DNA of 64,000 bases from Asticcacaulis sp. AND118 (GTDB lineage Bacteria; Pseudomonadota; Alphaproteobacteria; Caulobacterales; Caulobacteraceae). Shown here piece by piece: positions 26,580 through 61,918 of this stretch; positions within the stretch are counted from its first letter, which is position 1; every line of letters begins with the position of its first letter. The DNA lies in assembly GCF_020535245.1 (NCBI RefSeq), contig NZ_CP084911.1, forward strand, positions 446,001 through 510,000. The letters run 5' to 3'. Under the pieces are notes generated by a model, which saw nothing but the letters and a program-made list of their open reading frames with translations, ran no database searches and had not been told where the DNA came from. Made by a program: the position numbers and the translations under genes.

Positions 26580-26592
26580 CAGGAGGGAGACT

Positions 26593-26850: not shown

Positions 26851-27365
26851 GTGAACTTGTCACCTGTGCGGGGAAGGTGGTGGCGCTGGCGCCCCTCGTC
26901 GCTATCGGGCCGGTATGGGGAAATGGCCTTTATGAAGACACGCATCTGGCGTTCCCGGTCCATATCCAGGGCCTGCCTCAAACCCTGTGGTTCCAGTCGG
27001 AGGATGGTACAGACGCGGAAAGGGCCGCACTCAGACGCGCGCATGCCCAACTCGTCGCCGCCTGGCGGCGCTATCACCTAAGGGATGGCGTATCGCCGGG
27101 CCTGTTCGACCTGACCCATCTTCTGATCAGTCTTCAGGCCATCTCAGCCGTCAGTCCCATCTATACGAAGACGGTCACTGTGGGCGGCTGGGGCAGCGTC
27201 AGCCGTCATCAGCCGATCTACGACATCCATGTGTCAGGCCTCAGCGAATCCATTCGTCGCTCAGCCTCTGTGGCCGTGCCGCTGGACGTCCTGACGGCTG
27301 AGCGTAGTGCCCTTCTGGAAGCCTGGGCCGACTGGGTCGATCCTCTCACGCGACAGGCGGTGTAG
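26847..27365 (+). CDS. Unknown protein inside the imu operon
   Basis: This frame encodes 172 soluble residues. The start overlaps the previous stop by four bases and the stop is 6 bases before imuB. Visible features are a beta-rich N-terminus (VVALAPLVAIGPVWGNG), a helical middle (RRAHAQLVAAWRRYHLRDG) and KTVTVGGWGSVSRHQPIYDI. No known domain was recognised. Its location between imuA and imuB suggests a role in or near the error-prone polymerase complex; this is inference only. Confidence 0.7.
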   Translation: MSELVTCAGKVVALAPLVAIGPVWGNGLYEDTHLAFPVHIQGLPQTLWFQSEDGTDAERAALRRAHAQLVAAWRRYHLRDGVSPGLFDLTHLLISLQAISAVSPIYTKTVTVGGWGSVSRHQPIYDIHVSGLSESIRRSASVAVPLDVLTAERSALLEAWADWVDPLTRQAV

Positions 27366-27371
27366 GGTGTC

Positions 27372-28892
27372 ATGGCCCGCTACCTCAGCCTCTATCTGCC
27401 ATTCTGGGGGACCGATCGTCTGCGCCGCGCTGTGGGACTGGACGCGCTGCCGCTTGAGCGACCCCTAGTTCTGCAGGGCAAGGTCGGCAGCCGACGCCTC
27501 GTCACGGCGGTCGATGCGTTAGCTCATCAGCGCGGCGTGCGAGCGGGCATGGCGGTGGCCAAGGCGCAGGTGCTGATCGACGGGCTTGAGGTGCGTGACG
27601 CTGAGCTGGAGCGCGACGCCGAGGCGCTGGAGACACTCGCCGTATGGGCCTTGCGTCTCTACTCACCCGTGGTGGCCCCTGATACACCCGACGGTCTGAT
27701 CCTCGATATCACCGGCGCGGCCCATCTCTATGGGGGAGAGGCCGCTCTGGTCACAGATATACTGCGGCGTCTCGAGGCCCTTCACATCACCGCCTACGCC
27801 ACGGTCGCGGATAGCTGGGGGGCCGCCCATGCCCTGGTGCGCTTTGCGGGTAAATCTTCGCTGATCATTGCACCGGGTAAGTCCACCGAGGCCATCCTGC
27901 CCCTGCCGGTTGCGGCGCTTCGCCTGCCGGCCGAGACGGTCGAGGAACTGCGCCTTATTGGTATCGACACGATCGGCGAACTGGCGGCCAAGCCGCGCGC
28001 CCCGCTGGCGCTGCGCTATGGTCCCGACCTGTGGCGGCGCGTCGATATGGCGTTTGGGCGACTGGCCGAACCCATTGAGCCCGTCCAGGTCCCCGAACTG
28101 ATCTCGGTCGAACGCGCTTTCTTTGAGCCCATCGGGGCGCCTGACACCCTTGAGAAATATACCCGTCGTTTGACTGAATCCCTGTGCCTGAAACTGGAAG
28201 AGGCGGGGCTTGGGGCGCGACGGCTCGATCTGCACTTTGTGCGCGTCGATAGCCGCATCGAGACGATCTCCGTCGGCACCGCCAAGCCGGTGCGTGACGT
28301 CAAGCGCCTGTCGAAACTGCTGGTCGATAAGATCGAAACCGTCGAGCCGGGCTTCGGTATCGACAAAATGACCCTGTCAGCCCCTCTGGTCGAACCGCTG
28401 TGCTTCACGCAGGTGGCCACCAGCTTTGCCGCGCCCAGCCGCCCGGATGTCGAAGACCTGTGGGACACGCTCAGCAATCGCTATGGCGAGGGGCGACTTT
28501 ACCGCGCCGTGGAGGTCGCAAGCGATATCCCCGAGCGCTCGGTCAGACGGATCGCGCCTTCGGCATCCGGGACCGGCTCCGCTCGCAATGCCCGCTATCG
28601 CCGTCCGGCGCGCCTTTATCGCCCCGAACCGGTGCAGGCGCTCGCGGCCTTGCCCGATCATCCGCCGCGCGCCTTTACCTGGCGCGGTCAGCGTTACAGC
28701 GTCGTCTGTGCCGATGGCCCCGAACGGGTCAAGGGCGAGTGGTGGGTCAGCGACGCCGAAACCGGCAAGGTGCGCGACTACTATATCCTCGAAGCGGCCA
28801 CCGGCGAGCGCTTCTGGGTCTTCCGGGCCGGGGACGGCGAGCACACGGGCACCGGCTCTCTCAACTGGTATCTGCACGGGAAGTTCGACTGA
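27372..28892 (+). CDS. imuB: ImuB, catalytically degenerate Y-family polymerase homologue
   Basis: This 506-residue protein has the Y-family palm, fingers and little-finger layout ([58 protein letters not shown]). The N-terminal strand [15 protein letters not shown] lacks the metal-binding Asp of active DinB-type enzymes, as in known ImuB proteins. These act as a hub that binds the beta clamp, ImuA and DnaE2. The C-terminal tail from about 400 contains the ImuB-specific region ([15 protein letters not shown]). Its stop overlaps the dnaE2 start (TGATG). Confidence 0.9.
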
Positions 28893-31800
28893 TGCAGCCA
28901 CCTTACGTCGAGCTTCAGTGCGCGTCCTACTTCTCTTTCCTGCAGGGCTGTTCATCCCCAGATGAGCTGTTCGTGCGCGCACAGGCACTGGGTCTTGAGG
29001 CGCTGGCCATTGCGGATCGCAACACGCTCGCCGGTATGGTGCGCGCCCATGTGGCCGCCAAAGCCACGGGTGTGCGCCTGATCGTCGGCTGCCACCTTGA
29101 TCTGAGCGATGGCTCTTCGCTGCTCGTCTATCCCACCGACCGGGCGGCCTATGCGCGCCTGTCACGGCTTTTGACGGTGGGCAAGGCGCGGGGCGGCAAG
29201 GGCCGGTGCGACCTCACCTGGCAGGATGTGGAGGACTTCAACGCGGGCCTGATCGGCATCTTCATTCCGGAAGAGGCCGATGAGGTCTGCGCCCAGCGCC
29301 TGCGTCGCTTCAAGACCATCTTTGCCGAACGCGCCCATGTGGCGCTGACGCTGCGCCGCCGGCAGGGGGACCATCTGCGCCTGCATGAGTTGTCGAACCT
29401 CGCGGCGAGGGTGCGCGTGCCCACCGTCATTACCAATGATGTCCTCTATCATGTCCATGAGCGCGACCAGCTACACGATGTGGTCACCTGCATCCGCCAC
29501 AACTGCACCATCGACACCCTTGGGGATCTGCGCCACCGCTACGCCGATCGCTATCTCAAGACGCCGGAGGAGATGTATCGCCTGTTTCCGGGGTACGAGG
29601 GGGCATTAAGGCGCAGTGTCGAGATCGCCGATCAGTGCCGTTTCAGCCTCGACGAGCTTAAATACCAGTATCCGGAAGAGAAACTCCTGCCGGGACTGTC
29701 GGCCATCGACGCCCTCAAGAAACTGACCTGGGAAGGGGCGAAGCGGCGCTACCCGGAAGGCGTGCCGCAAAAGGTCATCGACCTTCTGCGCCATGAACTG
29801 ACCCTGATCGAGAAGCTCAACTACGCGCCCTATTTTTTGACCGTCAACGCCATCGTCAACTTCGCCCGCTCGCAGGATATCCTCTGTCAGGGGCGAGGCT
29901 CGGCCGCCAATAGCTGCGTTTGTTTTGTGCTGGGCATTACGAGCGTCGATCCGGACCGCAATGATCTTCTCTTCGAGCGCTTCATCTCCGAAGAGCGGGG
30001 GGAGCCGCCCGATATCGATGTGGACTTCGAGCACCAGCGGCGTGAGGAGGTGCTGCAATGGGTCTATGAGACCTATGGCCGCTCGCACGCCGCCCTTACC
30101 GCCGTCGTCACGCGGTTCCGCACGCGCGGGGCCATCCGGGCCGTGCTCAAGGTGATGGGCTATCCCGAAGACACGATCAAGCTGATCTCCAAGCAGGTGA
30201 CCCACTGGCACCGCGGCGGTATGACTTTGGCCGAGGCCGAAGGCTTAGGGCTCAATCTCAATGACCGGCGCCTGAAGCTCGCCATCGACCTGCACCTGTT
30301 GCTGATGAATGTGCCCCGGCATTTGAGCCAGCATCCGGGTGGCTTTGTCCTGACCCATGACCGGCTGGATGAGCTGGTGCCGATCGAGCCCGCACGCATG
30401 AAAGCCCGCCAAGTCATCGAATGGGACAAGGACGATATCGACGTGCTGGCCTTCATGAAGGTCGATTGCCTGGGGCTTGGCATGATGTCGTGCATGAAGC
30501 GCTCGCTCGATATGCTCGCTGAGGTCAAGGGCATAGAGCTTGATCTCGCCACCATCCCGGCCGAAGACCCGCGCACCTATGCCATGATCCGCAAGGCCGA
30601 CACGGTCGGTGTCTTCCAGATCGAAAGCCGCGCCCAGCAGGCCATGCTGCCACGCACCAAACCACGGACCTTCTATGATCTTGTGGTGCAGGTCGCCATT
30701 GTCCGCCCCGGCCCCATCCAGGGCGGCATGGTCCATCCCTACCTGCGACGCCGAGAAGGCACGGAAGAGGTCACCTATCCCTCAAAAGAACTGGAGGCCA
30801 TCCTCTCCAAAACCCTGGGCGTGCCTTTGTTTCAGGAGCAGGCCATGTCGGTTGTCATCAAGGCGGCCGGCTTTTCGCCTGGGCGCGCAGATATGGTCCG
30901 TCGCGCCATGGCCACCTTCAAACACACTGGCGGCGTCTCAAAATTCCATGACGAGATCGTGCAGGGGATGCTTAAAAACGGCTACACGCAGGACTATGCC
31001 GAGCAGATCTTCAGCCAGCTCGAAGGGTTTGGTTCCTATGGGTTTCCGGAGTCGCACGCCTATTCCTTCGCCCTGATCGCCTATGCCTCCTCCTGGATGA
31101 AATGCCATCACCCGGATGTCTTCTGTGCCGCGCTCCTCAACTCCCAGCCCATGGGCTTTTACGCCCCGGCGCAGCTGGTGCGCAACGCTCAGGAACACGG
31201 CGTGGAGGTCCGTCCGGTCTGCGTCAACGCCTCGCGCTGGGACTGTACGCTGGAAGAAACACACCGACCGGGACGCTATGCCGTACGTCTGGGCTTCCGG
31301 CTCGTCAAAGGGCTCAAAAGCGCGGACATCGCCAGGATGATCCTGCATCGCGGAGATTACCCCTTCACATCCATCCCCGATCTGTGGAAGCGGGCGCGCA
31401 CGCCGGTGGCGACGCTGCGGCAACTGGCTAAGGCCGATGCCTTCTCTCCCGCTCTCGGTCTCAACCGCCGGGACGCGCTGTTTGCCATCCGCGCCCTGCG
31501 TGATGATCCTCTACCCCTGTTCGATCATCTGGAGGCGGGGGCAGGGGGGACCGCCGCAATGCCCGAACCGCAGGTGAGCCTCAAACCGATGACGGCCGGG
31601 GCCGGGGTGGTCGAAGATTATAATCATCTCGGCCTGACGCTTGGGACGCATCCGGTCTCGTTCCTGCGCGAAGAGTTGCGTCAACGCGGCCTGATGACCT
31701 GCGCGGACGCTATGGCCTCAAAAGATGGGTGCCGCGTCAGCGTGGGCGGCATGGTGCTCGTCCGTCAGAAGCCGGGCTCGGCCAATGGCGTGATGTTCAT

Positions 31801-32119
31801 GACGCTCGAGGATGAGACCCGTGACGCCAATGTGGTGGTCTGGGAGAAGGTCGCTGCCGCCCACAAGGCCGCCGTCTATGGCTCGTCGTTTGTGGCCATC
31901 AACGGCTACATCCAGCGCGAAGGCGAGGTGGTCCACCTGATCGCGCGATCCGTCTTTGATCTCTCGCCGCTTCTGGCCAGTATCGGTGAGTGCGACACGC
32001 CCCTCAGCGTGCCCCGTATGCCCGGAGATGAGTTCCGCAATGGTGGGCCCGTACAGGATGCGCGAGTGGCCAGAGCGCAGGGCGGTGGCTGGGTGCAGAA
32101 GAGTAGGGATTTTAGGTGA
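28892..32119 (+). CDS. dnaE2: Error-prone DNA polymerase DnaE2
   Basis: This 1075-residue C-family polymerase has an N-terminal PHP domain ([15 protein letters not shown]), the palm with PDIDVDF (Asp374, 376, 378) and GRGSAANSC. Then come the fingers ([38 protein letters not shown]), helix-hairpin-helix and a C-terminal OB domain. Its length and lack of the long C-terminal tail of DnaE1 fit DnaE2. It carries out translesion synthesis and SOS mutagenesis with ImuA and ImuB. The longer open frame upstream is antisense-like overlap with imuB; ATG 28892 is coupled to the imuB stop. Confidence 0.95.
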
Positions 32120-32432
32120 TGGGGGGGCGAAGTCGGGGGCTGGTTTTGGCCCATTGCAGTCATTTGCCGGATCGCGGAAGAGCAAATTACCGGACATTGC
32201 GAAGCTGAGCCTATCGCCATCCCTCACCTGACATTATGGCGATTCCGACCTATCTACTCTTGAGTTATAGGCGCTGGCAAACCTGGGGCGGTTCACACCG
32301 ATGGTTCGAGCTCCTTGTCGCATCCTTCGATGTTTGCAGCGGCACGCTTAATCCGGCCGATTTACTCGATCCACCTGCCGACACTTTGATCCAACGCCGC
32401 TTCGTTTACGGCACTGTTAATGTCAGGTCGGC
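32120..32432. other. 313-base gap between dnaE2 and the IetAS-like operon
   Basis: This is where two convergent transcription units end. I see no terminator hairpin with a T-tract and no convincing gene. A 73-codon frame on the plus strand has no ribosome site and overlaps the protease gene's end. It may be the border between chromosomal DNA and inserted defence cargo. Confidence 0.5.
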
Positions 32433-34922
32433 TCAGCGTGTCGGAATGTCGATTTGAACGGGCTGCAGGATGGACGTCAGGATCGGGGTATAGAGGTCGA
32501 TATCCTGAGAAGGGGCCGACAAGGTCGCGACGAGGGCATACCGTGCCCTCTGGGCAAAGACACTCTCCGTCCGCCGCTCCTTCCACCAGCCGGAGACGGG
32601 TTTGACGCAAATCATATCCCGGGCGGCGAGACGGGCACCCGAGCCGCGCCACACGTCGCAGTGGAGAGATCCGGCGGCGATGCTATTGGCACCGAGCACC
32701 CAACCGGTATCTGCCGTCGTGATCCGTCCGAGGGGAGCGGGCTCGTCATCATTAACGCGATGCTTGAAGGCGCGGACGCTTTCGCCCGGTCGTTTGAGGT
32801 CGAAGCGCAAGCCATAGCTTTGATAGCGCTGAGGATCGACGGCAGCGGCGCGCCCCGGATTAGGGGCGACGAAATAGGAGAGGGTTACCTTAAGCTCGAA
32901 AATCTGATCAGCAAGGGCCCGTGATTCAAGAAGGGCCTTCGGCCAGGGCAGGTCAAAATAGTGGCAATCGTGGAACCCAACGCCACCGCTCTCACGCCGC
33001 CCATAGGGCTGTATGTCCTGCTGGACGATAATCGCCAGGTCGTTGGTCGCCGAGGATCGGGCGCGTTCATAATTGGGCACGCCGTACCCAAACTGGCGCA
33101 CCAGCTTCAACCGGTCCCTCTGGGCAGGATTGTCGTTGAGCAACTGTTCCATGGCGGGCGTCCATTGCGCACTGTGCACCATTAGGGCGCGAATGGTTTC
33201 CGGCCAGTAATCAGGGTGATCGGCCTGTAGGCGGGCCGCCATACGAGAGGCAAGCGCGGTGGCCGCACTGGTCGCCGCAAAATTGACCAAGGGTGCGCGA
33301 TCGACTTCACTGCCTGTCGTCAAAAGCTCAAGCGATGGACAATTCACGAGGGTGCGCCCGTCTGCCGACTGGGCGCGGTTGCCCGCCTCCATGACGATCT
33401 CGGGTTTGATAGGGGTCTTGCTCTGGCGCCAGCTCATGGAGTTTCGCGAGAACGGACTGACGCCGCCCGCGTCGGCGTGTGCCACGAAATCCCGCAAGCT
33501 CGGTTCGGCGATCACGGTCTTCTCGGTATAGCCGCCCACGGTGATGGCGTTCCAGGCCTGGGCCGGGTCCTCGATGGGGTATTGGTCCAAAGGCAGGTAG
33601 CGGGAGGCTTCTATATGGGCCGGACGGTTACCGGCTGAAATGAAAAATAGGCGCTTGGGTGCGGTTTCGTCGTCGCCGGCCATGAGGCCGGCTGCCGTAC
33701 GGTCAATGATTGCGCTCCATGTGGTCGCGCGTTCACCGGATATATCTTCGTTGGTGACCGCCAGACAGAAGACGCGCCGTTGTGCCGGGTTCTGAATTTC
33801 TGCAAGGGATACGGCTGACTGGGTGATGGAACCCAGTTTTGTCAGGTCGTTAGGCGGAAAACCGTCTGCGGGGAGTATGCGTACCGATTCCAGCCTATGC
33901 GTAAGCCGGAGCTCGCGTTGATCCTGTAGGACCGCGAACAGATCTCCGTGGAGCGCGAGGCCGGCCATTTCCGTGCCGTGCGGCTCTTCGATACTGTCGG
34001 TGGGTACCCAGTTCGCGTCGACTGTCAAGAGATCGGCCACGGACAGAGCCGGTTCAAGCAACGCATGTGCCCGGTTCACTCCCTTGTCCAGCACGCAGAC
34101 GCGGGGAACGTTCAGGCCAGGCCATCTGACGCGGGCCGCGTAGTCATCGACCCAGGCGTGCTGGTTGTCGGCCTGTTCGGCGACGAAGAAATGCGGGGTA
34201 TCCGTTCCGCGCCGCAGCTCCGCGATGCCATTGGTCGCAATGAGCGCCATCTCGATGTCGACGCGACGGGCAAATACGAACAGGACGGTGAGGTCGGGAA
34301 ACTGGAGCCATTGGTCTTCGGCCGCAAGGCGGCATTCAAGACGAGTGAAGGTATTGGACACCTCGGTTTCCAGACCCTTGTGACACCAGACCTCCCACCA
34401 GACAGAGGAAGGACGAACGGGCAGTAGCGAGAGCGGGTCAGTCCAGAAGGCTTCCAGGCGCGCCCGGCGAATGGCGTTTATCGGCTCGACATAGGATTTG
34501 TTCGGCGGGGCGTCGCTTTCACGCAGTGGGCCGGACCGATAATCTTCAAATATGGCCCTCAGCACCGGTACGGCCTCATCTGGTATGAAGACGACGGTAG
34601 TCGTGTCGTAAGTTTCCGGTTGGACCTTGGTCGCACCGCTTTGAATATGATCGCGCTTTCGTTCCAGTTTGGAAGGGGGCGCTCCCTTTTGCAGGTCGAC
34701 CTCGTAATAGGCACCTGCTGCGCGGGTCAGGCCGTCGATGGGTAGCACTTGCGCCTGTGCACTCGTGAAAGCGACCTGCAACTGATCGATCAGGGCCTGG
34801 CCATGGTCCTCTCTGATACGAGGGGCGCTGCCGCCGCCGCGACTGTTTGTTCGCGCCTTGTAGGTGTTGTGTGTCAGCCGGTCCGAGATATCGAAGTGAG
34901 GCAAATCGTACTCAGACGGCAT
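32433..34922 (-). CDS. ietS: IetS-like subtilisin-family serine protease (toxin/effector)
   Basis: This 829-residue protein has no signal peptide, so it acts in the cytoplasm. An N-terminal region of about 260 residues precedes a subtilase S8 domain with Asp279 (VCVLDKGVNRAH), His315 (PHGTEMAGLA), oxyanion Asn432 (SAGNRP) and Ser552 (FAATSAATALASR). Together with the AAA-ATPase eight bases upstream it matches the ietA-ietS pair of pTiC58. There the protease is toxic and the ATPase is the antidote, and the pair is also reported as an anti-phage system. The C-terminal 200 residues are of unknown role. The target is not known. Confidence 0.85.
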   Translation of the reverse strand: MPSEYDLPHFDISDRLTHNTYKARTNSRGGGSAPRIREDHGQALIDQLQVAFTSAQAQVLPIDGLTRAAGAYYEVDLQKGAPPSKLERKRDHIQSGATKVQPETYDTTTVVFIPDEAVPVLRAIFEDYRSGPLRESDAPPNKSYVEPINAIRRARLEAFWTDPLSLLPVRPSSVWWEVWCHKGLETEVSNTFTRLECRLAAEDQWLQFPDLTVLFVFARRVDIEMALIATNGIAELRRGTDTPHFFVAEQADNQHAWVDDYAARVRWPGLNVPRVCVLDKGVNRAHALLEPALSVADLLTVDANWVPTDSIEEPHGTEMAGLALHGDLFAVLQDQRELRLTHRLESVRILPADGFPPNDLTKLGSITQSAVSLAEIQNPAQRRVFCLAVTNEDISGERATTWSAIIDRTAAGLMAGDDETAPKRLFFISAGNRPAHIEASRYLPLDQYPIEDPAQAWNAITVGGYTEKTVIAEPSLRDFVAHADAGGVSPFSRNSMSWRQSKTPIKPEIVMEAGNRAQSADGRTLVNCPSLELLTTGSEVDRAPLVNFAATSAATALASRMAARLQADHPDYWPETIRALMVHSAQWTPAMEQLLNDNPAQRDRLKLVRQFGYGVPNYERARSSATNDLAIIVQQDIQPYGRRESGGVGFHDCHYFDLPWPKALLESRALADQIFELKVTLSYFVAPNPGRAAAVDPQRYQSYGLRFDLKRPGESVRAFKHRVNDDEPAPLGRITTADTGWVLGANSIAAGSLHCDVWRGSGARLAARDMICVKPVSGWWKERRTESVFAQRARYALVATLSAPSQDIDLYTPILTSILQPVQIDIPTR

Positions 34923-34931
34923 AGGGTCTCC

Positions 34932-35930
34932 TTAGCCCGCTGTCCTGTGCGTAAACGCCTCCTGCATGTCTCGGCGGGCTTGTAGACGCTGAACGAGCTG
35001 ATCGGAGGTGATACTATCGCGTTCGTTGAGAATGGCAAATTTAACCGCGTCGCCTGCTGCCTTGGCGATTTCAGCCTGACTGAGACCCGCGGAGGCGTCG
35101 AGGACCTTTGTCCAGGCGATAGCCTTGATTTTAAAGGGGCGAACCGCGCTTTGAACGATCTTTTTGACCTCGTCCTGGGTGGGCAGGCCGAATGCGAGAA
35201 CTGCGTCGAAGCGTCTTAACAGCGCCTTGTCCAAAAGCTCCGGGTGATTCGTGGCGCCGATGATCACGCTGTCGGTCGACGCCTCCTCCTCCATATACTG
35301 CAGGAAAGAATTCAGGACGCGTCGCATCTCGGCGACATCGTTGGAGGCGTCGCGCCGTCCGCCGACGGCGTCGAACTCGTCGAAGAGGTACACCCCGCGC
35401 CGTTTTGAGACCTCGTCGAAGATGAGACGAAGTTTCGCGGCGGTCTCCCCCATGAAGCGGGTAATCAACGTCTCCAGGCGGATGATGAAGAGCGGCAAGC
35501 CTAGTTGACCGGCCACGGCTTCCGCGGTCATGGTTTTGCCCGAACCGGGCGGACCGACAAACAGAATGCGGCGATTGGGCACGCGGCCATGTTCACGTAA
35601 CCAGTTGCGGCGGTGCTGCTCCTGTACCAGTTCATCCAGGCTGGTCCGTAGCCGGGCGTCTACCACGACGTCTTTCAGGCCGTATCGCGCGTCGCGATGC
35701 GAGATCAGGCCTTCTAGTTCGCCCCGTGGCTTGGAGAACTGAATGGCGACCGGTCCTTTGGGCGTTGCCGCCTGGGCAGACTCGACCGCGCTTCGCAACG
35801 CGTCGGCGGTTGACCGATGGCCCTGGCGCGCTTCTGCGGCAGCCACCTGAAGGGCGATGGAGTAAAACTGCTCCTGATCGCCTTCGGCGTGGCTCTGCAA
35901 CAGAGCAAGGATTTGCTTGGCGCTCGACAC
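34932..35930 (-). CDS. ietA: IetA-like AAA-ATPase (partner of the subtilase)
   Basis: This protein of about 332 residues has a helical N-terminus (SAKQILALLQSHAEGDQEQF) and a AAA+ module: Walker A GPPGSGKT at 126-133, Walker B YLFDEFD at 181-187, sensor 1 ATNH at 226-229 and an Arg finger at about 239. A GTG start at 35930 is used because homologues begin at this helix; an upstream in-frame start at 36029 would add 33 unlikely residues. It is the first gene of the operon, and the known role of IetA is to restrain IetS. An IS110 copy sits about 160 bases upstream, possibly affecting its promoter. Confidence 0.83.
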   Translation of the reverse strand: MSSAKQILALLQSHAEGDQEQFYSIALQVAAAEARQGHRSTADALRSAVESAQAATPKGPVAIQFSKPRGELEGLISHRDARYGLKDVVVDARLRTSLDELVQEQHRRNWLREHGRVPNRRILFVGPPGSGKTMTAEAVAGQLGLPLFIIRLETLITRFMGETAAKLRLIFDEVSKRRGVYLFDEFDAVGGRRDASNDVAEMRRVLNSFLQYMEEEASTDSVIIGATNHPELLDKALLRRFDAVLAFGLPTQDEVKKIVQSAVRPFKIKAIAWTKVLDASAGLSQAEIAKAAGDAVKFAILNERDSITSDQLVQRLQARRDMQEAFTHRTAG

Positions 35931-36172
35931 GGGCAGAGATTCTCTTATTTGCGTTAAATTAAGGGTAACGGGAATGGGCGGTGATGGCGAGGGTTTTATA
36001 GCGAACAGCCTGACATGTCCGGCTGACAAGACGTGTCAGCACCATCCAACCCCATCTGCTTGCAAGCGTTGCCGCAGGGAAACCGCCGAATGTCCGCTAA
36101 TGGGATGGACCGGCTGCTTCCCTTGCGAAGTAGTCGGAGTAGACTGCTTGGCGCCACCCGGAGAAGCATCCC

Positions 36173-37225
36173 ATGGATACGAACATTCCTGAGTTAGCGT
36201 CGATAGGCATAGATATCGGCAAGGACGTGTTTCACCTTGTCGGATTTAGTACAGATGGTCAGATCGTTCTTCGCCGTAAAATCAAACGGCTGGCTCTGAC
36301 AGAGACATTTAAAAAGCTGCCGCCGTGTATCGTCGGCATGGAGGCCTGCCTCAGCGCGCATTTTGTCAGTCGCACCCTTCGACAGCTCGGCCACGAACCG
36401 CGCATCATCCCCGCTATTTACGTAAAGCCGTTTCTGAAGGGGCAGAAGAACGACTACAATGATGCCGAGGCTATAGCCGAGGCGGCTCTGCGGCCGAACC
36501 TGTCGACAGTGAGTGAGAAGACCCAGGATCAATTGGATCTTCAGGCCTGCCATCGCGTTCGCTCGCGGCTGGTGTCGCGGCGCACAGCGACGATCAATCA
36601 GATCCGTGCCTTCCTAATCGAGCAGGGCATCACGGTCAGGGTCGGTGTGCGTGCCTTACGTGACTCGCTCTTCGACATCTTGAACAACCGCGCAGATGAG
36701 ATTTCGCCGCGTATGAGCCAACTCATCGTTGGCCTTTATGAAGACTGGTTGTGGCTCGATGAACGCATCGAGACCCTCAGCGGCGAGATCGAAGAAATCA
36801 GCCGGAATGAAGCCAACTGCCGTCGCCTGATGAGTGTGCCGGGCGTCGGGCCCCTGATCTCCACGGCGGTTGTTGCCGCCATTGGCACAGGTGAAGCCTT
36901 TGAACGTGGTCGCGACTTCGGTGCCTGGCTGGGGTTGGTACCCAAGCAGTTCAGCACGGGTGGCCGCTCTATTCTCGGGCGCATCTCAAAACGCGGAAGC
37001 CGATACCTTCGAACCTTGTTCGTACAGGCCGCCAATGTCCTCTTGATGAGGCCTCAAAATTGGCCGAAGTACAGCTTCGGAGACTGGCTCACCAGCGCCG
37101 CCACGCGGATGCACCGAAACAAGCTCGCCGCCGCCCTCGCCAACAAGCTGGCTCGGATCAGCTGGAGCGTATTGAGTACAGGAAAGGCTTTCGATACCCA
37201 CAGAACCGAGATCGAGGCCGTATAG
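36173..37225 (+). CDS. IS110-family DEDD transposase (copy A)
   Basis: This 350-residue protein has an N-terminal RuvC-like DEDD domain, with Asp in GIDIGKD, Glu in GMEACLS and two Asp in NDYNDAEAIAEA. The C-terminal transposase-20 domain has SVPGVGPLISTAVVAAIGTG and WLGLVPKQFSTGGR, with the conserved Ser region near GRSILGRISKRG. It is intact and full length. The enzyme mobilises the element as a circle and inserts it at specific sites, in this family guided by an element-encoded RNA. Confidence 0.95.
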   Translation: MDTNIPELASIGIDIGKDVFHLVGFSTDGQIVLRRKIKRLALTETFKKLPPCIVGMEACLSAHFVSRTLRQLGHEPRIIPAIYVKPFLKGQKNDYNDAEAIAEAALRPNLSTVSEKTQDQLDLQACHRVRSRLVSRRTATINQIRAFLIEQGITVRVGVRALRDSLFDILNNRADEISPRMSQLIVGLYEDWLWLDERIETLSGEIEEISRNEANCRRLMSVPGVGPLISTAVVAAIGTGEAFERGRDFGAWLGLVPKQFSTGGRSILGRISKRGSRYLRTLFVQAANVLLMRPQNWPKYSFGDWLTSAATRMHRNKLAAALANKLARISWSVLSTGKAFDTHRTEIEAV

Positions 37226-37460
37226 CATCGATCTCCACCCAGTTCGCGACTAAGACGACTGCATGGAACGGAACGATAAACGCGCCCTGAGCCTGAGCGC
37301 CCTAATGGCCGCTTGCCGGCCGATCCGCTAATGAGGCCAAAAGCGCGTGCGTATTCCCATCAAGGCCACGGCTCGCATGCCGATCAACAGGCCGGATACA
37401 TATAAGCGACTTCTGCTATTCATGCGAAATCTTACTTGCGATCGGCAGCCGGTCCATACA
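37226..37460 (+). ncRNA. Candidate bridge-RNA region in the right end of the IS110 element (copy A)
   Basis: The 235 bases between the transposase stop and the point where the two copies diverge have no gene and are identical in both copies. In IS110-family elements the longer noncoding end encodes a structured guide (bridge) RNA; for IS1111-type members this is the 3' end. The nonamer CCGCTAATG at the left end recurs here at 37325-37333. No secondary structure was computed, so this is a positional prediction. The matching region of copy B is 44113-44347. Confidence 0.35.
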
Positions 37461-37495
37461 ATTGGGCGCGAGGGTGCCAAAGGCCGCAGGCCTAG

Positions 37496-37894
37496 TTATG
37501 GCGTCGTGGGGGGCAACGGGCGGACGTCTAGATGTACGGCCAGGTTTTTCTGCTCATTCTTGAGTCTGACGTAAATGTTTCCCTGTTCATCTGTATATAA
37601 CAAACGGCAAACTTCCCCGTGGCCAATTCGCGTGACGCAAACGGCGCTTGAGCGCGCAATCCAAATTCCGTGAATGGGCCCCCGTCCGTAAAGCACATAG
37701 CTACCATCGCGTCGGAACACCTCCGCCATGTCGCAGCACTGTGGTCCGGCGGATGTGTCACTTAACCGGTGCCTGATTTCATCGTTACTCAACGAGCGTA
37801 GTTCAGAAATGGGCCTTGGAGACTTGTTTGGATCTGCAAATGCTGCCGGGCAGGTCAGCAGGGTCAGTTTCAAGGTCAGAATAAACCACTTCAA
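37496..37894 (-). CDS. Small exported protein of unknown function
   Basis: This 132-residue protein has a Sec signal peptide (FILTLKLTLLTCPAAFAD, cut near 20). The mature part is about 110 residues with four Cys, including the pair in GPQCCDMAEVFRRDG, and beta-strand segments such as GSYVLYGRGPIHGIW and EQGNIYVRLKNEQ. No family was recognised. It lies alone just inside the IS110-bracketed segment. Confidence 0.6.
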   Translation of the reverse strand: MKWFILTLKLTLLTCPAAFADPNKSPRPISELRSLSNDEIRHRLSDTSAGPQCCDMAEVFRRDGSYVLYGRGPIHGIWIARSSAVCVTRIGHGEVCRLLYTDEQGNIYVRLKNEQKNLAVHLDVRPLPPTTP

Positions 37895-38037
37895 GCTATT
37901 TCCCTTTCGGCAGGGCAGAATTATTGACTGCTAAATTGCACGCGGTAAAACGATAAATTTTCAGGGAGAAGTGCTGAGAAATGCCTTCTGCGATGGGCAC
38001 AACGTACATCCGCTAACGAGCCGAAATTTGCAATTAG

Positions 38038-38460
38038 TCACAGCGGCAGTCCTATTTCCCCTTCGGGCGCGAAGATGCCTAACCGATCGGATGGATTGCC
38101 ATGCCGGGTCGCCGGGGATAGTCGCCCACGCGCCTCCTCATTTTCAGGCGCTAGCGCGAGAGCTAAAGTGAACTCCTGCCTGGCAATTGAGGGATTTACC
38201 TTTCCAAGCCGAAGGTGGGCTTCAGCGTTTTCCGGCTCTTCCTGTATCCAATCCTCACAAGTCGGCAAAACAATCGACGTGAGAAGAGGAGATGGAACGA
38301 TACTGAGCCGCAAGGTCTCAAGGATCCAAAGTGACAGGTCTAGGCGCGCATTGAGTGGCCAATCGAAGCCATGATTTATACAACGGAACCAAGGGATTCC
38401 TGCGGCGAGGTCAAAGGTCTGAGTGAGCGATCGTGAAGCTGATGGCTCTTTCAGTGGCAC
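38038..38460 (-). CDS. Small protein with a TPR-like repeat
   Basis: This 140-residue frame contains EEPENAEAHLRLGKV and EFTLALALAPENEEARGRL, two helices with tetratricopeptide spacing; the rest is unassigned. The GTG start at 38460 lies inside the last 50 bases of the membrane-protein gene, so it would be translated by coupling. The ribosome site is weak. If real it probably binds a partner protein, perhaps the membrane protein. Confidence is limited because the repeat evidence is short. Confidence 0.45.
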   Translation of the reverse strand: MPLKEPSASRSLTQTFDLAAGIPWFRCINHGFDWPLNARLDLSLWILETLRLSIVPSPLLTSIVLPTCEDWIQEEPENAEAHLRLGKVNPSIARQEFTLALALAPENEEARGRLSPATRHGNPSDRLGIFAPEGEIGLPL

Positions 38461-39829
38461 GTTCGGCTAGTAGCTCGGTCATGCGACGGAAGATATCAGC
38501 TTGGGTGGCCTGGTATTGCCTGTCCTTGAGATAGGCGCTTAGGCTGGCTTCGATGCCTGCAGAAACGCCCGTGTCCAGGTCGTCATCGAAGTGATCGTCA
38601 AGCGCCATAGCCTTCATGATCGCAGAGGCAAATGAGATGAGGCCCATGCCGGTAATGGCCAGTAACCAGTAAGCAGCAGGCAATGTTTCAATCGGCAGCT
38701 TGTGAGCGTAAAAGCGTTCGGTCATGAATATGGCCGTAGCGACAGACAAAGCGACGTATATGGCTAGCCCGATCAACACAAAAGTGCGTTTAGAGAGTCC
38801 GAAGAAAAGATCGCCGGGTTGTCCCCATCTGAAATAACGCCCTCTGAATAGGGCTTCGGCTCGTTGGCCGCGGACAGCGATTTTTATATTGAAAATCTGA
38901 TCCTTGACGACTGCGTTATTGGCATGAGCCCGTGCGCGCAGGTGCAGGCAGTAGCTACACAGACGGGTTAACTTGCAACGGATTTGGTCTGTATTTTCAC
39001 GCGCCGAGTGAGTCGCCCGCAGGCGCGCCATCGTTTCCAGCAACCGGCCGAGGACGGACAGGATGCGTTCTTGGCGCAGGGCGATCTGCGCGCCCAATGC
39101 CGTCGCCATAGCCACCATCTCGGCGGCAAAACCTTCGCGATAGGAATGGTGCTTCAAGCGAACGCGTTGCTCAATGAGTAGGCCTATCAGAAAGAGTATA
39201 ATGGCAAGGAGGCAGGGCAGGGTGGGTGAGATGACGCTCAGAAACTGGTAGGTGGCCTGCTTTGTTGCGATTAGTCGCGCGATTAAGGTCTCGACCAGAG
39301 GCGTCGTCCAGGCCATGGCAAACCACAAAACGGGTTGCGAAAAGTGCCACAGCTTCAGGCTGCTTTTTCGACGACGTACGGTGACGTAATAGGTTGAAAG
39401 CTGTGCGTTGACGTGGGTCGTAAAGCGCCAGACGGTATCGCGCAGGTCTTTGTCGTTTCGTGGATCGAGGCGATCACCCGGAAAGCGGCGATCATACGCT
39501 TGCAGGCGCTTGCGAAACCACACGGCCGGACACGTATCCTCACACCCATCGAGTGAGGGAAGCGGTTCGCTGGGCACTTCGTCCGCGGGCAAAGGTGTTA
39601 GTGGCTGTAGGAATGATTCCTCGAAGGCGGTTGCGGCTTCCGTGTCTGACAGGAGGTTTAAATAAACATCTGCACTGAGGAGAGAATTACATTCCAAATC
39701 GGCATTTAGCGCGGACTGTGTATACTGAGAAGTTAACAAATCATTTGAAACGACCTCATCAATATGTCTGTAGATGCCATCTGTCAGGCATCTTTGATAT
39801 AGAGTCTTAACGTCTCTGTTGCTCAGCAT
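38411..39829 (-). CDS. Membrane protein of unknown function, divergent from a sigma-like gene
   Basis: This 472-residue protein has a soluble N-terminal region of about 165 residues with a Cys pair (GCEDTC). Two membrane helices follow at about 170-220, then a cytoplasmic helical block rich in Arg (LGRLLETMARLRATH), two more helices at about 345-405 and a helical C-terminal tail. I recognise no family. It is divergent from the sigma-like gene across 167 AT-rich bases. A membrane protein beside a sigma-like factor suggests a signalling or anti-sigma role, which is inference. Confidence 0.65.
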   Translation of the reverse strand: MLSNRDVKTLYQRCLTDGIYRHIDEVVSNDLLTSQYTQSALNADLECNSLLSADVYLNLLSDTEAATAFEESFLQPLTPLPADEVPSEPLPSLDGCEDTCPAVWFRKRLQAYDRRFPGDRLDPRNDKDLRDTVWRFTTHVNAQLSTYYVTVRRRKSSLKLWHFSQPVLWFAMAWTTPLVETLIARLIATKQATYQFLSVISPTLPCLLAIILFLIGLLIEQRVRLKHHSYREGFAAEMVAMATALGAQIALRQERILSVLGRLLETMARLRATHSARENTDQIRCKLTRLCSYCLHLRARAHANNAVVKDQIFNIKIAVRGQRAEALFRGRYFRWGQPGDLFFGLSKRTFVLIGLAIYVALSVATAIFMTERFYAHKLPIETLPAAYWLLAITGMGLISFASAIMKAMALDDHFDDDLDTGVSAGIEASLSAYLKDRQYQATQADIFRRMTELLAERATERAISFTIAHSDL

Positions 39830-39996
39830 GATGACACCTGCCGATCTTATAAATACGTGCGGAGGGGCGATCCTCCTGAATCCCTATGCAGTTCGGGCTG
39901 GGTGTTTTTACGGTAAATATTTTTTTAATTTTTTCTCGTTCCGGGCGTGAAAAAGTTGGCGTTCGACTGCATAGGTATATGTAGGAGGGTTGTGCC

Positions 39997-40692
39997 ATGA
40001 CAAAACTTCCATCCGCCGATACGGTGCCGACAGGGCCACTTCATTCGGCTGAGTCATCCTTGCCTGTAGGGTTTGACACGTCGGCCGCACTGGCGAAGAC
40101 GGTCCCTCCCGATGAGCCGCGTAAGTCGCGACCGCCGGATAGGGCACTCCCCCTATTTGATGACAAGCTTCTCCTTCGATTGATGGGAAAACTTGGCGCG
40201 TACGCCCGCTATCAGATCAAACTTTATCCATGGAAGTACTGTCCGCCGCCTGACCCGGACGATTTCGTTCAAGACGCCATTCTCGATGCCTTTGCCAACG
40301 TTTCCGGAGGCATGGTGAAGCGGATATGGAACATCGAGCGTATTGATTTGGAAACCTTCGCTAGAGGCCACATCCGAAGTCGTATAAATATGCTGGTGCA
40401 TTCTGCCAGAGCTACGACCACCACGCATACAGATGAAGTCGAAACCTATCAGGACACCTCCAATAGATTTAAAGGTCAATATTTGGACGAGTATATCGTC
40501 ATCAGTGACCTGAGAATAGATTTGCTCAATGCATTTAGTAAAAATCAACAAGTTATGGCGGTCCTTCGGATCGTTATAAGAGACGTCCATTATAGCTGCA
40601 CCGCAATAGCGCGCGAACTGCAATGGGATCCAAAACAGGTTCAGAGAACCTGGCTCCGTATTGCTTCAGTAGCACGAAACATAAGTAACTAA
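39997..40692 (+). CDS. Sigma-70-like (ECF-type) factor, divergent
   Basis: This 231-residue protein has an unstructured 50-residue N-terminus. A helix pair then resembles sigma region 2: LMGKLGAYARYQIKLYPWK and DPDDFVQDAILDAF at 86-99, the latter equivalent to the usual D-x-V-Q-E-x-F motif. The C-terminal region 4-like helices are VLRIVIRDVHYSCTAIARE and WDPKQVQRTWLRIASVARN. It is clearly remote from FecI-type factors. TAGGAGG precedes the ATG by 8 bases. The downstream gene, 9 bases away, is a ribonucleotide reductase subunit, so the pair is probably co-expressed. Confidence 0.65.
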   Translation: MTKLPSADTVPTGPLHSAESSLPVGFDTSAALAKTVPPDEPRKSRPPDRALPLFDDKLLLRLMGKLGAYARYQIKLYPWKYCPPPDPDDFVQDAILDAFANVSGGMVKRIWNIERIDLETFARGHIRSRINMLVHSARATTTTHTDEVETYQDTSNRFKGQYLDEYIVISDLRIDLLNAFSKNQQVMAVLRIVIRDVHYSCTAIARELQWDPKQVQRTWLRIASVARNISN

Positions 40693-40701
40693 GGTGTGAT
40701 C

Positions 40702-42846
40702 ATGTCCACTCTAACTCACAATAGCGACCTATTGGTCTCCTCCTCAGAGGAAGATGTCGTACGCGTTTCGGTACTTGAAGAATCCATGCCTTGGGAGGAC
40801 CTGGAAGAGCCGGTCACGACGTTCGCCTTTGAATCCTTGGTCGACAAACTTCAGGCCTTGCGTGACGCCTGTCCTGACCCTGAGAGAGCGGTCAGGCTGT
40901 TCAATAGGTCGCTGCGAAAACCTGAGGATGCGGAACCGTCTGCGGGGCCTGCACGTAAAGCGAAGCCTGTCCTGAACAGTCATACAGGGACCGACAACGG
41001 GACGTCCAAGCCGCCGCCGAATAAGCCCCTTACTGTGAGAAAGAAGGAGGCTCCGGAATTCAGATTGGTCAAATCTGTGGTTACGGATCCGCGTCTTGAC
41101 GCCAAACTGACCAATTTTGGCAAAAAGACGCTCGATGACCGCTATCTTCTGCCGGGTGAGACTTATCAGGACATGTTCGCCCGCGTTGCGACGGCCTATT
41201 CCGATGACTCCGAGCACGCCCAGCGAATATACACCTACATGGCCAATCTGTGGTTCATGCCGGCTACGCCTATCCTGTCGAACGGAGGCGCCAAGCGCGG
41301 CCTGCCCATCTCCTGCTTCCTCAACTCGGTGCCCGACTCGCTCGAAGGCATCGTCAGCGTGTGGAATGAGAACGTGGCGCTGGCCTCGAACGGCGGTGGC
41401 ATCGGCACCTATTGGGGCGGCGTGCGCTCCATCGGGGAGCGGGTTAGGGCCGGGGGGCAGACGGCAGGTATTATTCCATTTGTTCGGGTAATGGACTCGC
41501 TGACGCTGGCCATCTCCCAAGGTAATCTGCGGCGTGGTTCGGCTGCCGTCTATATCGACATCCATCACCCGGAAATCGAAGAATTCCTCGAAATCCGCAA
41601 GCCGTCGGGCGACTTCAACCGCAAGTCTCTCAATCTCCATCACGGTATCTCGATTACTGACGAGTTCATGTTGGCAGTGCGAGATGGTAGCCCGTTCGGA
41701 CTACGCTCGCCCAAATCCGGCGAGATCATGCGGTTGATCGACGCGCGCGCCCTGTGGCAGAAGATCCTCGAAATCCGCATGCAGACGGGTGAACCCTATC
41801 TGATCTTCGCCGACACGGTGAACCGGTCCATGGCCCCGCACCAGCGTGAGTTGGGCCTTAAGGTCAAGCAATCGAACCTGTGCGCCGAAATCATGCTGCA
41901 CACGGGTAAGGACCATCTGGGGCATGAGCGCACAGCCGTGTGCTGCCTGTCCTCGGTCAATGCCGAAACCTTCCTCGAATGGCGCGACGAACCGCGCTTC
42001 ATCGAAGACATCATGCGCTTCCTCGACAACGTGCTGGAAGACTTCATCCAGTCGGCCCCGGACGCCATGTCGGCGGCCGTCTATTCGGCGCAGCGCGAAC
42101 GCTCGGTCGGCCTCGGCCTGATGGGCTTCCACTCCTTCCTGCAATCGCAGGGCGTGGCCTTCGAATCGGCCATGGCCAAGTCGTGGAACATGCGCCTGTT
42201 CAAGCACCTGCGCCGCGAAGCCGACAAGGCCTCGGTCAAGCTGGCTCAGGAGCGCGGGCCCTGCCTCGACGCCGAAGAACGCGGCGTGATGGAACGCTTC
42301 TCGCACAAGCTGGCCATCGCCCCCACCGCCTCGATCTCGATCATCTGCGGCGGCACCTCGGCAGGTATCGAGCCGATCCCGGCCAATATCTATACGCACA
42401 AAACCCTGTCGGGCTCGTTTGCAGTGAAAAACCCCTTCCTGCAAAACCTGCTGGCCGAAAAGGGTCTCGATACGCCGGAAACCTGGGACTCCATCGTCGA
42501 ACACGAAGGCTCGGTGCAGCACATCGACGCTCTCAGCGAAGACGAAAAGGCCATCTTCAAGACCGCCTTCGAAATCGACCAGCGCTGGGTGGTGGAACTG
42601 GCCGCCGACCGTGCGCCGGAAATCTGCCAGTCGCAATCGCTCAACATCTTCCTGCCGGGTGATGTCGATAAGTGGGACCTGCACATGCTGCACTGGACGG
42701 CGTGGGAACAGGGCGTCAAGTCGCTCTACTATCTGCGTTCCAAATCGGTGCAGCGCGCCGCGTTTGCTGGCTCGGAAGGCAGGGGCAGGATATCGACGTT
42801 GGGGGTAGGCAAGACCGATTATCAGGAGTGCTTGACCTGTCAATAG
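40702..42846 (+). CDS. nrdA: Class I ribonucleotide reductase large subunit with atypical N-terminus
   Basis: This 714-residue protein reduces ribonucleotides to deoxyribonucleotides. The catalytic residues are present: Cys205 (PISCFLNS), Asn392, Cys394 and Glu396 (NLCAEIM), Cys414 (AVCCLSS), the radical-path Tyr pair in SLYYLRS and the redox Cys pair in the tail ECLTCQ. The core begins about residue 125 (DPRLDAKLTNFGKKTLDDRY). The first 120 residues are acidic then basic and low in complexity, and do not look like an ATP cone. ATG 40702 was used over a GTG six bases upstream. No nrdB is in the window, so it must borrow a small subunit. Confidence 0.9.
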   Translation: MSTLTHNSDLLVSSSEEDVVRVSVLEESMPWEDLEEPVTTFAFESLVDKLQALRDACPDPERAVRLFNRSLRKPEDAEPSAGPARKAKPVLNSHTGTDNGTSKPPPNKPLTVRKKEAPEFRLVKSVVTDPRLDAKLTNFGKKTLDDRYLLPGETYQDMFARVATAYSDDSEHAQRIYTYMANLWFMPATPILSNGGAKRGLPISCFLNSVPDSLEGIVSVWNENVALASNGGGIGTYWGGVRSIGERVRAGGQTAGIIPFVRVMDSLTLAISQGNLRRGSAAVYIDIHHPEIEEFLEIRKPSGDFNRKSLNLHHGISITDEFMLAVRDGSPFGLRSPKSGEIMRLIDARALWQKILEIRMQTGEPYLIFADTVNRSMAPHQRELGLKVKQSNLCAEIMLHTGKDHLGHERTAVCCLSSVNAETFLEWRDEPRFIEDIMRFLDNVLEDFIQSAPDAMSAAVYSAQRERSVGLGLMGFHSFLQSQGVAFESAMAKSWNMRLFKHLRREADKASVKLAQERGPCLDAEERGVMERFSHKLAIAPTASISIICGGTSAGIEPIPANIYTHKTLSGSFAVKNPFLQNLLAEKGLDTPETWDSIVEHEGSVQHIDALSEDEKAIFKTAFEIDQRWVVELAADRAPEICQSQSLNIFLPGDVDKWDLHMLHWTAWEQGVKSLYYLRSKSVQRAAFAGSEGRGRISTLGVGKTDYQECLTCQ

Positions 42847-42980
42847 ATGTTGCTTTGAGGCATGTCCCGAGGTCAGAGTGAACTGCTCCGAGTTTGCCGG
42901 GGGCTCTACTCGGGAGTAGATTGGTCGGGGCCGTCGCGATGTCTGCTTACGGGTTGCCTATGGGCTAGACCTCGCAATGA

Positions 42981-44347
42981 CCGCTAATGGGATGGACCGG
43001 CTGCTTCCCTTGCGAAGTAGTCGGAGTAGACTGCTTGGCTCCACCCGGAGAAGCATCCCATGGATACGAACATTCCTGAGTTAGCGTCGATAGGCATAGA
43101 TATCGGCAAGGACGTGTTTCACCTTGTCGGATTTAGTACAGATGGTCAGATCGTTCTTCGCCGTAAAATCAAACGGCTGGCTCTGACAGAGACATTTAAA
43201 AAGCTGCCGCCGTGTATCGTCGGCATGGAGGCCTGCCTCAGCGCGCATTTTGTCAGTCGCACCCTTCGACAGCTCGGCCACGAACCGCGCATCATCCCCG
43301 CTATTTACGTAAAGCCGTTTCTGAAGGGGCAGAAGAACGACTACAATGATGCCGAGGCTATAGCCGAGGCGGCTCTGCGGCCGAACCTGTCGACAGTGAG
43401 TGAGAAGACCCAGGATCAATTGGATCTTCAGGCCTGCCATCGCGTTCGCTCGCGGCTGGTGTCGCGGCGCACAGCGACGATCAATCAGATCCGTGCCTTC
43501 CTAATCGAGCAGGGCATCACGGTCAGGGTCGGTGTGCGTGCCTTACGTGACTCGCTCTTCGACATCTTGAACAACCGCGCAGATGAGATTTCGCCGCGTA
43601 TGAGCCAACTCATCGTTGGCCTTTATGAAGACTGGTTGTGGCTCGATGAACGCATCGAGACCCTCAGCGGCGAGATCGAAGAAATCAGCCGGAATGAAGC
43701 CAACTGCCGTCGCCTGATGAGTGTGCCGGGCGTCGGGCCCCTGATCTCCACGGCGGTTGTTGCCGCCATTGGCACAGGTGAAGCCTTTGAACGTGGTCGC
43801 GACTTCGGTGCCTGGCTGGGGTTGGTACCCAAGCAGTTCAGCACGGGTGGCCGCTCTATTCTCGGGCGCATCTCAAAACGCGGAAGCCGATACCTTCGAA
43901 CCTTGTTCGTACAGGCCGCCAATGTCCTCTTGATGAGGCCTCAAAATTGGCCGAAGTACAGCTTCGGAGACTGGCTCACCAGCGCCGCCACGCGGATGCA
44001 CCGAAACAAGCTCGCCGCCGCCCTCGCCAACAAGCTGGCTCGGATCAGCTGGAGCGTATTGAGTACAGGAAAGGCTTTCGATACCCACAGAACCGAGATC
44101 GAGGCCGTATAGCATCGATCTCCACCCAGTTCGCGACTAAGACGACTGCATGGAACGGAACGATAAACGCGCCCTGAGCCTGAGCGCCCTAATGGCCGCT
44201 TGCCGGCCGATCCGCTAATGAGGCCAAAAGCGCGTGCGTATTCCCATCAAGGCCACGGCTCGCATGCCGATCAACAGGCCGGATACATATAAGCGACTTC
44301 TGCTATTCATGCGAAATCTTACTTGCGATCGGCAGCCGGTCCATACA
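42981..44347 (+). mobile_element. IS110-family insertion sequence, copy B
   Basis: This is the same 1367-base element as copy A in the same orientation, exactly 6887 bases to the right. The single noticed difference (T at 43040) lies upstream of the transposase. Near identity indicates recent movement. Homologous recombination between the two copies would delete one IS and the sigma-like/nrdA segment as a circle. Confidence 0.88.
43060..44112 (+). CDS. IS110-family DEDD transposase (copy B)
   Basis: The translated product is identical over all 350 residues to that of copy A, with the same DEDD residues and C-terminal serine domain. It is intact and presumably active. It lies immediately after the nrdA gene and before the FseA-like genes of the conjugative element. 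Confidence 0.95.
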   Translation: MDTNIPELASIGIDIGKDVFHLVGFSTDGQIVLRRKIKRLALTETFKKLPPCIVGMEACLSAHFVSRTLRQLGHEPRIIPAIYVKPFLKGQKNDYNDAEAIAEAALRPNLSTVSEKTQDQLDLQACHRVRSRLVSRRTATINQIRAFLIEQGITVRVGVRALRDSLFDILNNRADEISPRMSQLIVGLYEDWLWLDERIETLSGEIEEISRNEANCRRLMSVPGVGPLISTAVVAAIGTGEAFERGRDFGAWLGLVPKQFSTGGRSILGRISKRGSRYLRTLFVQAANVLLMRPQNWPKYSFGDWLTSAATRMHRNKLAAALANKLARISWSVLSTGKAFDTHRTEIEAV

Positions 44348-54753: not shown

Positions 54754-54762
54754 GGGATCGCC

Positions 54763-56153: not shown

Positions 56154-56183
56154 CTGACTTCAACTCAAACATGGAGATATCTG

Positions 56184-59202: not shown

Positions 59203-59245
59203 AAACTCCCCTGACCTCAACTCTCAACTGAAGGCTCAATTTGCT

Positions 59246-59965: not shown

Positions 59966-59996
59966 TCCCCCTCAGCTTCAGATTGGCGGCAGGACC

Positions 59997-61199: not shown

Positions 61200-61202
61200 C
61201 CG

Positions 61203-61907: not shown

Positions 61908-61918
61908 AGGAGATTTTG

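What the first reader, a model, noticed from the sequence alone, without database searches (positions are those of the whole stretch)
37461..42980. IS110-bracketed segment with a remote sigma factor, a membrane protein and an unusual ribonucleotide reductase
Two near-identical IS110 copies in direct orientation enclose a membrane protein of unknown family, a divergent sigma-like factor and an nrdA gene 9 bases behind it. The sigma-like protein and the membrane protein may form a signalling pair. The reductase has a 120-residue low-complexity N-terminus in place of an ATP cone and no nrdB partner. The set could be a stress or phage-related nucleotide supply module moved as a unit.
Basis: partly seen in the sequence, partly recalled or inferred. 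Interest (0 to 1): 0.6.

Follow-up and report, generated by a model that had tools for sequence, protein, structure and literature searches.

The report
Mobile module with spare reductase gene
A 4.9-kb DNA module carrying a second copy of an essential DNA-building enzyme and two proteins found nowhere else has moved between replicons of the bacterium Asticcacaulis; the two insertion sequences around it are later arrivals and did not carry it.

Summary
The genes described are there, but the frame around them is wrong. The real unit is window 38065-42985. It recurs at 99.6% identity on plasmid pASDW145_1 of Asticcacaulis sp. DW145 with no IS110 at either edge, so the two IS110 copies did not carry it. 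All four IS110 copies in this genome sit at one target motif (CCGCT^..GGGCGC); the right-hand one lies inside a ~115-bp repeat that ends the unit. The reductase (NrdA2) is an extra class I large subunit of Asticcacaulis origin, with catalytic motifs intact and strong purifying selection. The chromosomal NrdA also lacks an ATP cone; NrdA2's novelty is an orphan N-terminal extension of ~80-85 residues. Its middle ~960 bp was overwritten by gene conversion from a related Asticcacaulis nrdA. The only nrdB is chromosomal. The 'sigma-like' and membrane proteins are orphans in every collection searched; the sigma assignment is plausible but not statistically supported. In both genomes the module lies beside a different, 37-42% identical IetAS anti-phage pair. 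Most likely it is a regulated accessory reductase subunit that borrows chromosomal NrdB. A defence 'guard' module is the most novel reading not excluded.

The parts
38065..42985 (.). mobile module: 4,921-bp block shared at 99.6% identity with plasmid pASDW145_1
   Evidence: blastn 4921 bp, 18 mismatches, no gaps; no DNA homology on either side
38411..39829 (-). orphan membrane protein, 472 aa, about four membrane segments by eye
   Evidence: ORF; no Pfam, NCBIfam, PHROGs or PDB relative, only noise in 385 alphaproteobacterial genomes
39880..39978 (.). 13-nt inverted repeat (ATCCCTATGCAGT / ACTGCATAGGTAT), one arm before each divergent gene; candidate shared operator or promoter
   Evidence: the repeat finder 92% complementary arms, 73 nt apart
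39997..40692 (+). orphan 231-aa protein with ECF-sigma-like motif order (DPDDFVQDAILDAF ... C-terminal helix-turn-helix-like region)
   Evidence: ORF; no database hit; weak hhalign match to region 4 of ECF factors; shuffle test p about 0.01
40702..41064 (+). N-terminal extension of NrdA2 (about 120 aa, of which ~80-85 exceed the chromosomal NrdA); coding-like, orphan
   Evidence: only open frame of six and best codon score; codon usage like the sigma-like gene, unlike the nrdA core; no homologue outside DW145
40702..42846 (+). nrdA2, class I ribonucleotide reductase large subunit (listed from GTG 40696; ATG at 40702)
   Evidence: NF006577/PRK09102 992 bits against a cut-off of 620; catalytic motifs SCFL, SNLCAEI, CCLSS, YYLRS and C-terminal CLTC present
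41752..42709 (+). gene-conversion tract in nrdA2, 96-97% identical to chromosomal nrdA of an Asticcacaulis clade; flanks about 79%
   Evidence: sliding identity and region trees
42872..42985 (+). ~115-bp repeat (model R1) that ends the module; it is the insertion site of the right IS110
   Evidence: cmsearch 105.5 bits; other copies at 32182-32301 minus and beside the module in DW145
32182..32301 (-). second copy of the ~115-bp repeat, beyond IetS
   Evidence: cmsearch 97.6 bits
36099..37460 (+). left IS110 copy, 1,362 bp, in target CCGCT^ATTGGGCGC
42986..44347 (+). right IS110 copy, 1,362 bp, in target CCGCT^TTCGGGCGC
32433..36029 (-). IetS-like subtilase (32433-34922) and IetA-like AAA ATPase (34932-36029), an anti-phage pair next to the module
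   Evidence: PADLOC IetS 5e-35, IetA 1.9e-70
37496..37894 (-). 132-aa ORF with a signal-peptide-like start, between the left IS110 and the module; not part of it

Best explanation
Window 38065-42985 is an accessory module of Asticcacaulis plasmids and secondary replicons. It consists of a divergent pair of transcription units: an orphan membrane protein on one side, and a regulator-like protein followed by a second class I ribonucleotide reductase large subunit (NrdA2) on the other. Shown by sequence: the module recurs almost unchanged in a different context; NrdA2 is intact, of Asticcacaulis origin, under purifying selection, and has been partly rewritten by gene conversion; the IS110 copies inserted at their own target motif. 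Inferred: the regulator-like protein and the shared inverted repeat control both units; NrdA2 is made when this switch is on and works with the single chromosomal NrdB as an extra dNTP-making subunit; the N-terminal extension, which looks like a foreign segment fused to nrdA, adds a binding or regulatory surface. How the module moves is not shown. Its left junction in the window reads CCCCTTCGGGCGC, one base from the IS110 target, which suggests an IS110-mediated deletion and precise excision in the past.
For: The module is 99.6% identical over 4,921 bp in DW145 with no IS110 there. All 10 nrdA2 differences between the two copies are synonymous; dN/dS of the unconverted part against the chromosomal copy is 0.10, and catalytic motifs are intact. 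The gene is mosaic, with residues ~351-670 96-97% identical to nrdA of a related clade and only 92% to the own chromosome. There is one nrdB, on C1. The backbone nests within Asticcacaulis with support 0.957 in the protein tree. IS110 target motif CCGCT^(N)TTGGGCGC in 4 of 4 copies, with small variation. The extension is the only open frame, with codon usage like the upstream gene. Shared 13-nt inverted repeat. No NrdR box close to consensus upstream, whereas one with 3 mismatches precedes chromosomal nrdA (weak).
Against: No expression or activity data exist. Only two copies of the module are known, so conservation says little. The sigma assignment is weak. All three differences in the sigma-like gene change the protein, which may mean relaxed constraint. 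NrdA2 without its own nrdB is unusual for mobile reductases; the Brevundimonas and Caulobacter phages carry both subunits.
Confidence: 0.5

Rival explanations
1. Guard or decoy defence module: NrdA2 is a bait that resembles host NrdA and is watched by its fused extension and the regulator-like protein; phage tampering with host reductase or dNTP levels releases the regulator, which switches on the membrane protein and kills or arrests the cell.
For: Next to two different IetAS anti-phage pairs; a membrane protein in a divergent unit with a shared inverted repeat; the converted tract keeps the core of NrdA2 like host NrdA; Caulobacteraceae phages carry their own NrdAB; a precedent for defence that senses phage reductase activity exists (Clover, PMC12265719).
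Against: No known defence model matches the three proteins. Catalytic residues are kept, which a decoy would not need. IetAS is common on alphaproteobacterial plasmids, so the neighbourhood may be chance. Two instances only.
Confidence: 0.12
2. IS110 composite transposon: the two direct IS110 copies mobilised the segment between them.
For: Near-identical direct copies at both sides.
Against: DW145 has the module without IS110; the left IS110 is 604 bp away from the module edge; all four IS110 copies sit in the same target motif, and two are elsewhere on the chromosome.
Confidence: 0.04
3. Neutral passenger: a duplicated nrdA captured on mobile DNA, kept for a short time and of little effect.
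For: Only this genome out of 299 Caulobacteraceae genomes has the sigma-like gene, so the module is rare; protein-changing differences dominate in the sigma-like gene.
Against: dN/dS 0.10 on a long branch and 10 of 10 synonymous differences in nrdA2 show selection on the protein over a long time.
Confidence: 0.2
4. Phage-derived nucleotide supply module.
For: Phages of Brevundimonas and Caulobacter carry related NrdA, 65-73% identical. One DNA tree grouped NrdA2 with the phage MaInes gene.
Against: That grouping disappears in protein and codon-position-1+2 trees, where NrdA2 nests in Asticcacaulis; backbone amino-acid identity is 84% to own NrdA and 62% to MaInes. No phage genes lie nearby.
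Confidence: 0.04

Closest known systems
Alphaproteobacterial class I NrdA without ATP cone (NF006577 / PRK09102), as in the chromosomal copy of this genome
   Same: Same family, same catalytic motifs, no ATP cone, tail CxxC
   Different: Extra ~80-85 N-terminal residues, mobile location, operon with a regulator-like gene, mosaic sequence
NrdAB of Brevundimonas and Caulobacter siphoviruses (BabaJaga, Seuss, MaInes)
   Same: Extra class I large subunit of the same family outside the core genome
   Different: Phages carry nrdB next to nrdA and no such extension; different tree position
IetAS anti-phage system
   Same: Adjacent pair (subtilase plus AAA ATPase) beside both known copies of the module
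   Different: A separate gene pair; the module itself matches no defence model
IS110 family / IS621 bridge-RNA elements (PMC11208160)
   Same: DEDD and Transposase_20 domains, target-directed insertion, CT at the insertion point
   Different: They are neighbours and later insertions, not the vehicle of the module; the bridge RNA was not modelled here
ECF sigma factors
   Same: Order of motifs in the 231-aa protein
   Different: No significant profile match; no anti-sigma gene recognised

Membership tests
Class I ribonucleotide reductase large subunit (NrdA) | Barrel and all-alpha domains over curated cut-offs | tested here: met
   PF02867 377 bits, PF00317 67 bits, NF006577 992 bits
Class I ribonucleotide reductase large subunit (NrdA) | Active-site cysteines, N-x-C-x-E motif, tyrosine pair and C-terminal cysteine pair | tested here: met
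   SCFL 204, SNLCAEI 391, CCLSS 414, YYLRS 676, CLTC at the C-terminus
Class I ribonucleotide reductase large subunit (NrdA) | A radical-generating NrdB partner in the genome | tested here: met
   Single nrdB on C1:389442-390260, 350-aa ORF; use by NrdA2 not tested
Class I ribonucleotide reductase large subunit (NrdA) | Enzymatic activity | not testable with these tools
   No bench data
ATP-cone-regulated NrdA | N-terminal ATP cone | tested here: not met
   No ATP-cone hit in NrdA2 or in its first 128 residues alone; the chromosomal NrdA has no room for one
ECF sigma factor | Significant match to sigma regions 2 and 4 | tested here: inconclusive
   No Pfam/NCBIfam/PHROGs/PDB hit; hhalign to region 4 only, probability 4%; 16 of 1,406 scored shuffles reach the score
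IS110 composite transposon | Segment moves with flanking IS copies | tested here: not met
   DW145 copy lacks IS110
IS110 family | DEDD_Tnp_IS110 and Transposase_20 domains; fixed target motif | tested here: met
   PF01548 1.3e-17, PF02371 6.7e-24, NF033542 312 bits; four shared target sites
IetAS anti-phage system (neighbour) | IetS and IetA adjacent | tested here: met
   PADLOC 5e-35 and 1.9e-70; below NCBIfam cut-offs, so divergent members

The most novel reading that the evidence does not exclude
A mobile immunity module in which a host-mimicking reductase subunit with a fused orphan domain acts as the sensor, a divergent sigma-like protein as the switch, and a membrane protein as the effector, exchanged between IetAS defence islands.
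Probability: 0.1. Interest if true: 0.85.

Novelty: new variant of a known kind. Interest (0 to 1): 0.4.

Why it matters
The closest mobile reductases found here, in phages of Caulobacteraceae, come as nrdA plus nrdB. In this module a lone large subunit of host origin was fused to an orphan N-terminus, placed behind a private regulator-like gene and moved between replicons, while its core has been rewritten by host nrdA. That makes a clean case for asking what an accessory large subunit does when it must borrow the host's radical-generating subunit. If the defence reading is right, it would add reductase to the host machines that bacteria use as bait.

Tried and rejected
Phage origin of NrdA2: a GTR DNA tree gave support 100 for grouping with phage MaInes; rejected as a composition/long-branch artefact after identity, protein and position-1+2 checks. 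Integron-like cassettes: the ~115-bp repeat and a GGGCGC at unit edges suggested attC-like sites, but folding is not above shuffles, GGGCGC is part of the IS110 target, and the first ~50 bp of the repeat is the end of an IS3-family element. A widespread AATGTCCGCTTT repeat: not enriched in the genus. AlphaFold models of the two orphan proteins without alignments were unusable (mean pLDDT 38), so no fold search was run. Searches for relatives of the orphans in 84,980 species genomes (close relatives only), IMG/VR, PDB and 385 alphaproteobacterial genomes found none or only noise. One iqtree run timed out; FastTree was used instead.

Full report
What is there. The two IS110 copies are real: 1,362 bp each, 36099-37460 and 42986-44347, identical but for one base. 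Between them lie a 132-aa ORF (37496-37894, minus), a TPR-like ORF (38038-38460, minus), a 472-aa membrane protein (38411-39829, minus), a 231-aa protein (39997-40692, plus) and nrdA2 (ATG 40702, stop 42846). The window lies on a 999-kb contig of a 4.05-Mb, four-contig genome; the near-identical hit in Asticcacaulis sp. DW145 places it in or next to the genus Asticcacaulis, and "congeners" below means the 24 other genomes of its genus in the search.

The real unit. Plasmid pASDW145_1 (345 kb) of Asticcacaulis sp. DW145, a duckweed-associated strain (PMC11008219), holds window 38065-42985 at 99.6% identity, 4,921 bp with 18 mismatches and no gaps. Neither side of that block matches by DNA. No IS110 is annotated around it. 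So the IS110 pair did not carry the module. The four IS110 copies of this genome all sit in the motif CCGCT^(N)TTGGGCGC, with small variation, which fits the target-directed insertion known for this family (PMC11208160). The right copy lies inside a ~115-bp repeat at the module's right end; the uninterrupted repeat is seen in DW145.

Neighbours. In both genomes the module is next to an IetS/IetA pair in the same orientation, but the two pairs are only 37% and 42% identical, against 99.6% for the module. Recombination therefore joined the module to two different IetAS pairs. IetAS-like pairs are frequent on alphaproteobacterial plasmids, so this is suggestive only.

The reductase. NrdA2 passes the curated NrdA model with a wide margin and keeps the catalytic motifs. 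The genome has a second, chromosomal nrdA (C1:278416-280260), a single chromosomal nrdB, and a protein at C1:1479514 with only a weak reductase-barrel match. The chromosomal NrdA and those of the 24 congeners have only a short N-terminus; class I reductases whose large subunit has no ATP cone are known (PMC5794259). NrdA2 is longer by ~80-85 residues. This stretch is the only open frame of six there, with codon usage like the sigma-like gene and unlike the nrdA core, which suggests a foreign segment fused to nrdA. It has no homologue outside DW145 in the collections searched.

Mosaic history. Residues ~351-670 are 96-97% identical in DNA to the nrdA of an Asticcacaulis clade (L068/L069), against 92% to the own chromosome; the flanking parts are about 79%. 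This is best read as a gene-conversion tract from a host other than the present one. The unconverted part nests in Asticcacaulis in protein and position-1+2 trees, with dN/dS 0.10 to the own copy. Between the window and DW145 all 10 nrdA2 differences are synonymous, while all 3 in the sigma-like gene and 2 of 5 in the membrane protein change the protein.

The orphan pair. Neither protein has a relative in Pfam, NCBIfam, PHROGs, PADLOC, PDB, IMG/VR or the 84,980-species scan; in 299 Caulobacteraceae genomes the 231-aa protein is found only in this one, and 385 alphaproteobacterial genomes gave only noise for both. The 231-aa protein shows the motif order of an ECF sigma factor by eye, but profile tests are inconclusive. 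A 13-nt inverted repeat places one arm before each of the two divergent genes, as expected of a shared operator or promoter. Chromosomal nrdA has an NrdR-box-like site with 3 mismatches; the best site in and around the module's intergenic region has 5, which is what shuffles give.

Reading. The best-supported account is an accessory, privately regulated reductase large subunit on a mobile module that relies on the chromosomal NrdB. Catalysis with NrdB, regulation by the 231-aa protein and the role of the extension are inferences. A defence guard module is possible; a reductase-sensing defence system has a precedent in Clover (PMC12265719), but nothing here tests it.

Noticed in passing
window 32182-32301 (-), 42872-42988 (+); L012 12956-13075, 17876-17998; L066 29693-29810, L192 527-643, L193 1021-1135, L191 9572-9688: A ~115-bp intergenic repeat recurring in several Asticcacaulis genomes and on the DW145 plasmid; its first ~50 bp match the end of an IS3-family element (L197), the rest is unexplained.
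   Followed up: partly
window 38052-38080: The module's left edge reads CCCCTTCGGGCGC, one base from the IS110 target, in DNA where no IS110 is now present: possible scar of an IS110-mediated deletion and precise excision.
   Followed up: partly
window 38038-38460 (-): 140-aa ORF with a TPR-like stretch crossing the module's left edge and overlapping the membrane protein gene; may be a gene remnant.
   Followed up: no
L007 2252-5113 (G000 C1:1479514): 953-aa chromosomal protein with a weak reductase-barrel match, possibly a degenerate class II relative; domain content not checked.
   Followed up: no
window 52705-63908: TraG/Trb-type conjugation genes (by eye) in the order seen in integrative conjugative elements, about 10 kb to the right of the module.
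   Followed up: no
window 25827-32119: ImuA/ImuB/DnaE2-type mutagenesis cassette (by eye) directly to the left of the IetAS pair.
   Followed up: no
L066 19740-25392: The DW145 plasmid carries Pnkp/Hen1-type RNA repair genes and a RelBE-type pair near the module: a defence-rich region.
   Followed up: no
L203: NrdA of Brevundimonas phage MaInes has low GC3 (0.54) and attracts long branches in DNA trees (false support 100 with NrdA2).
   Followed up: yes
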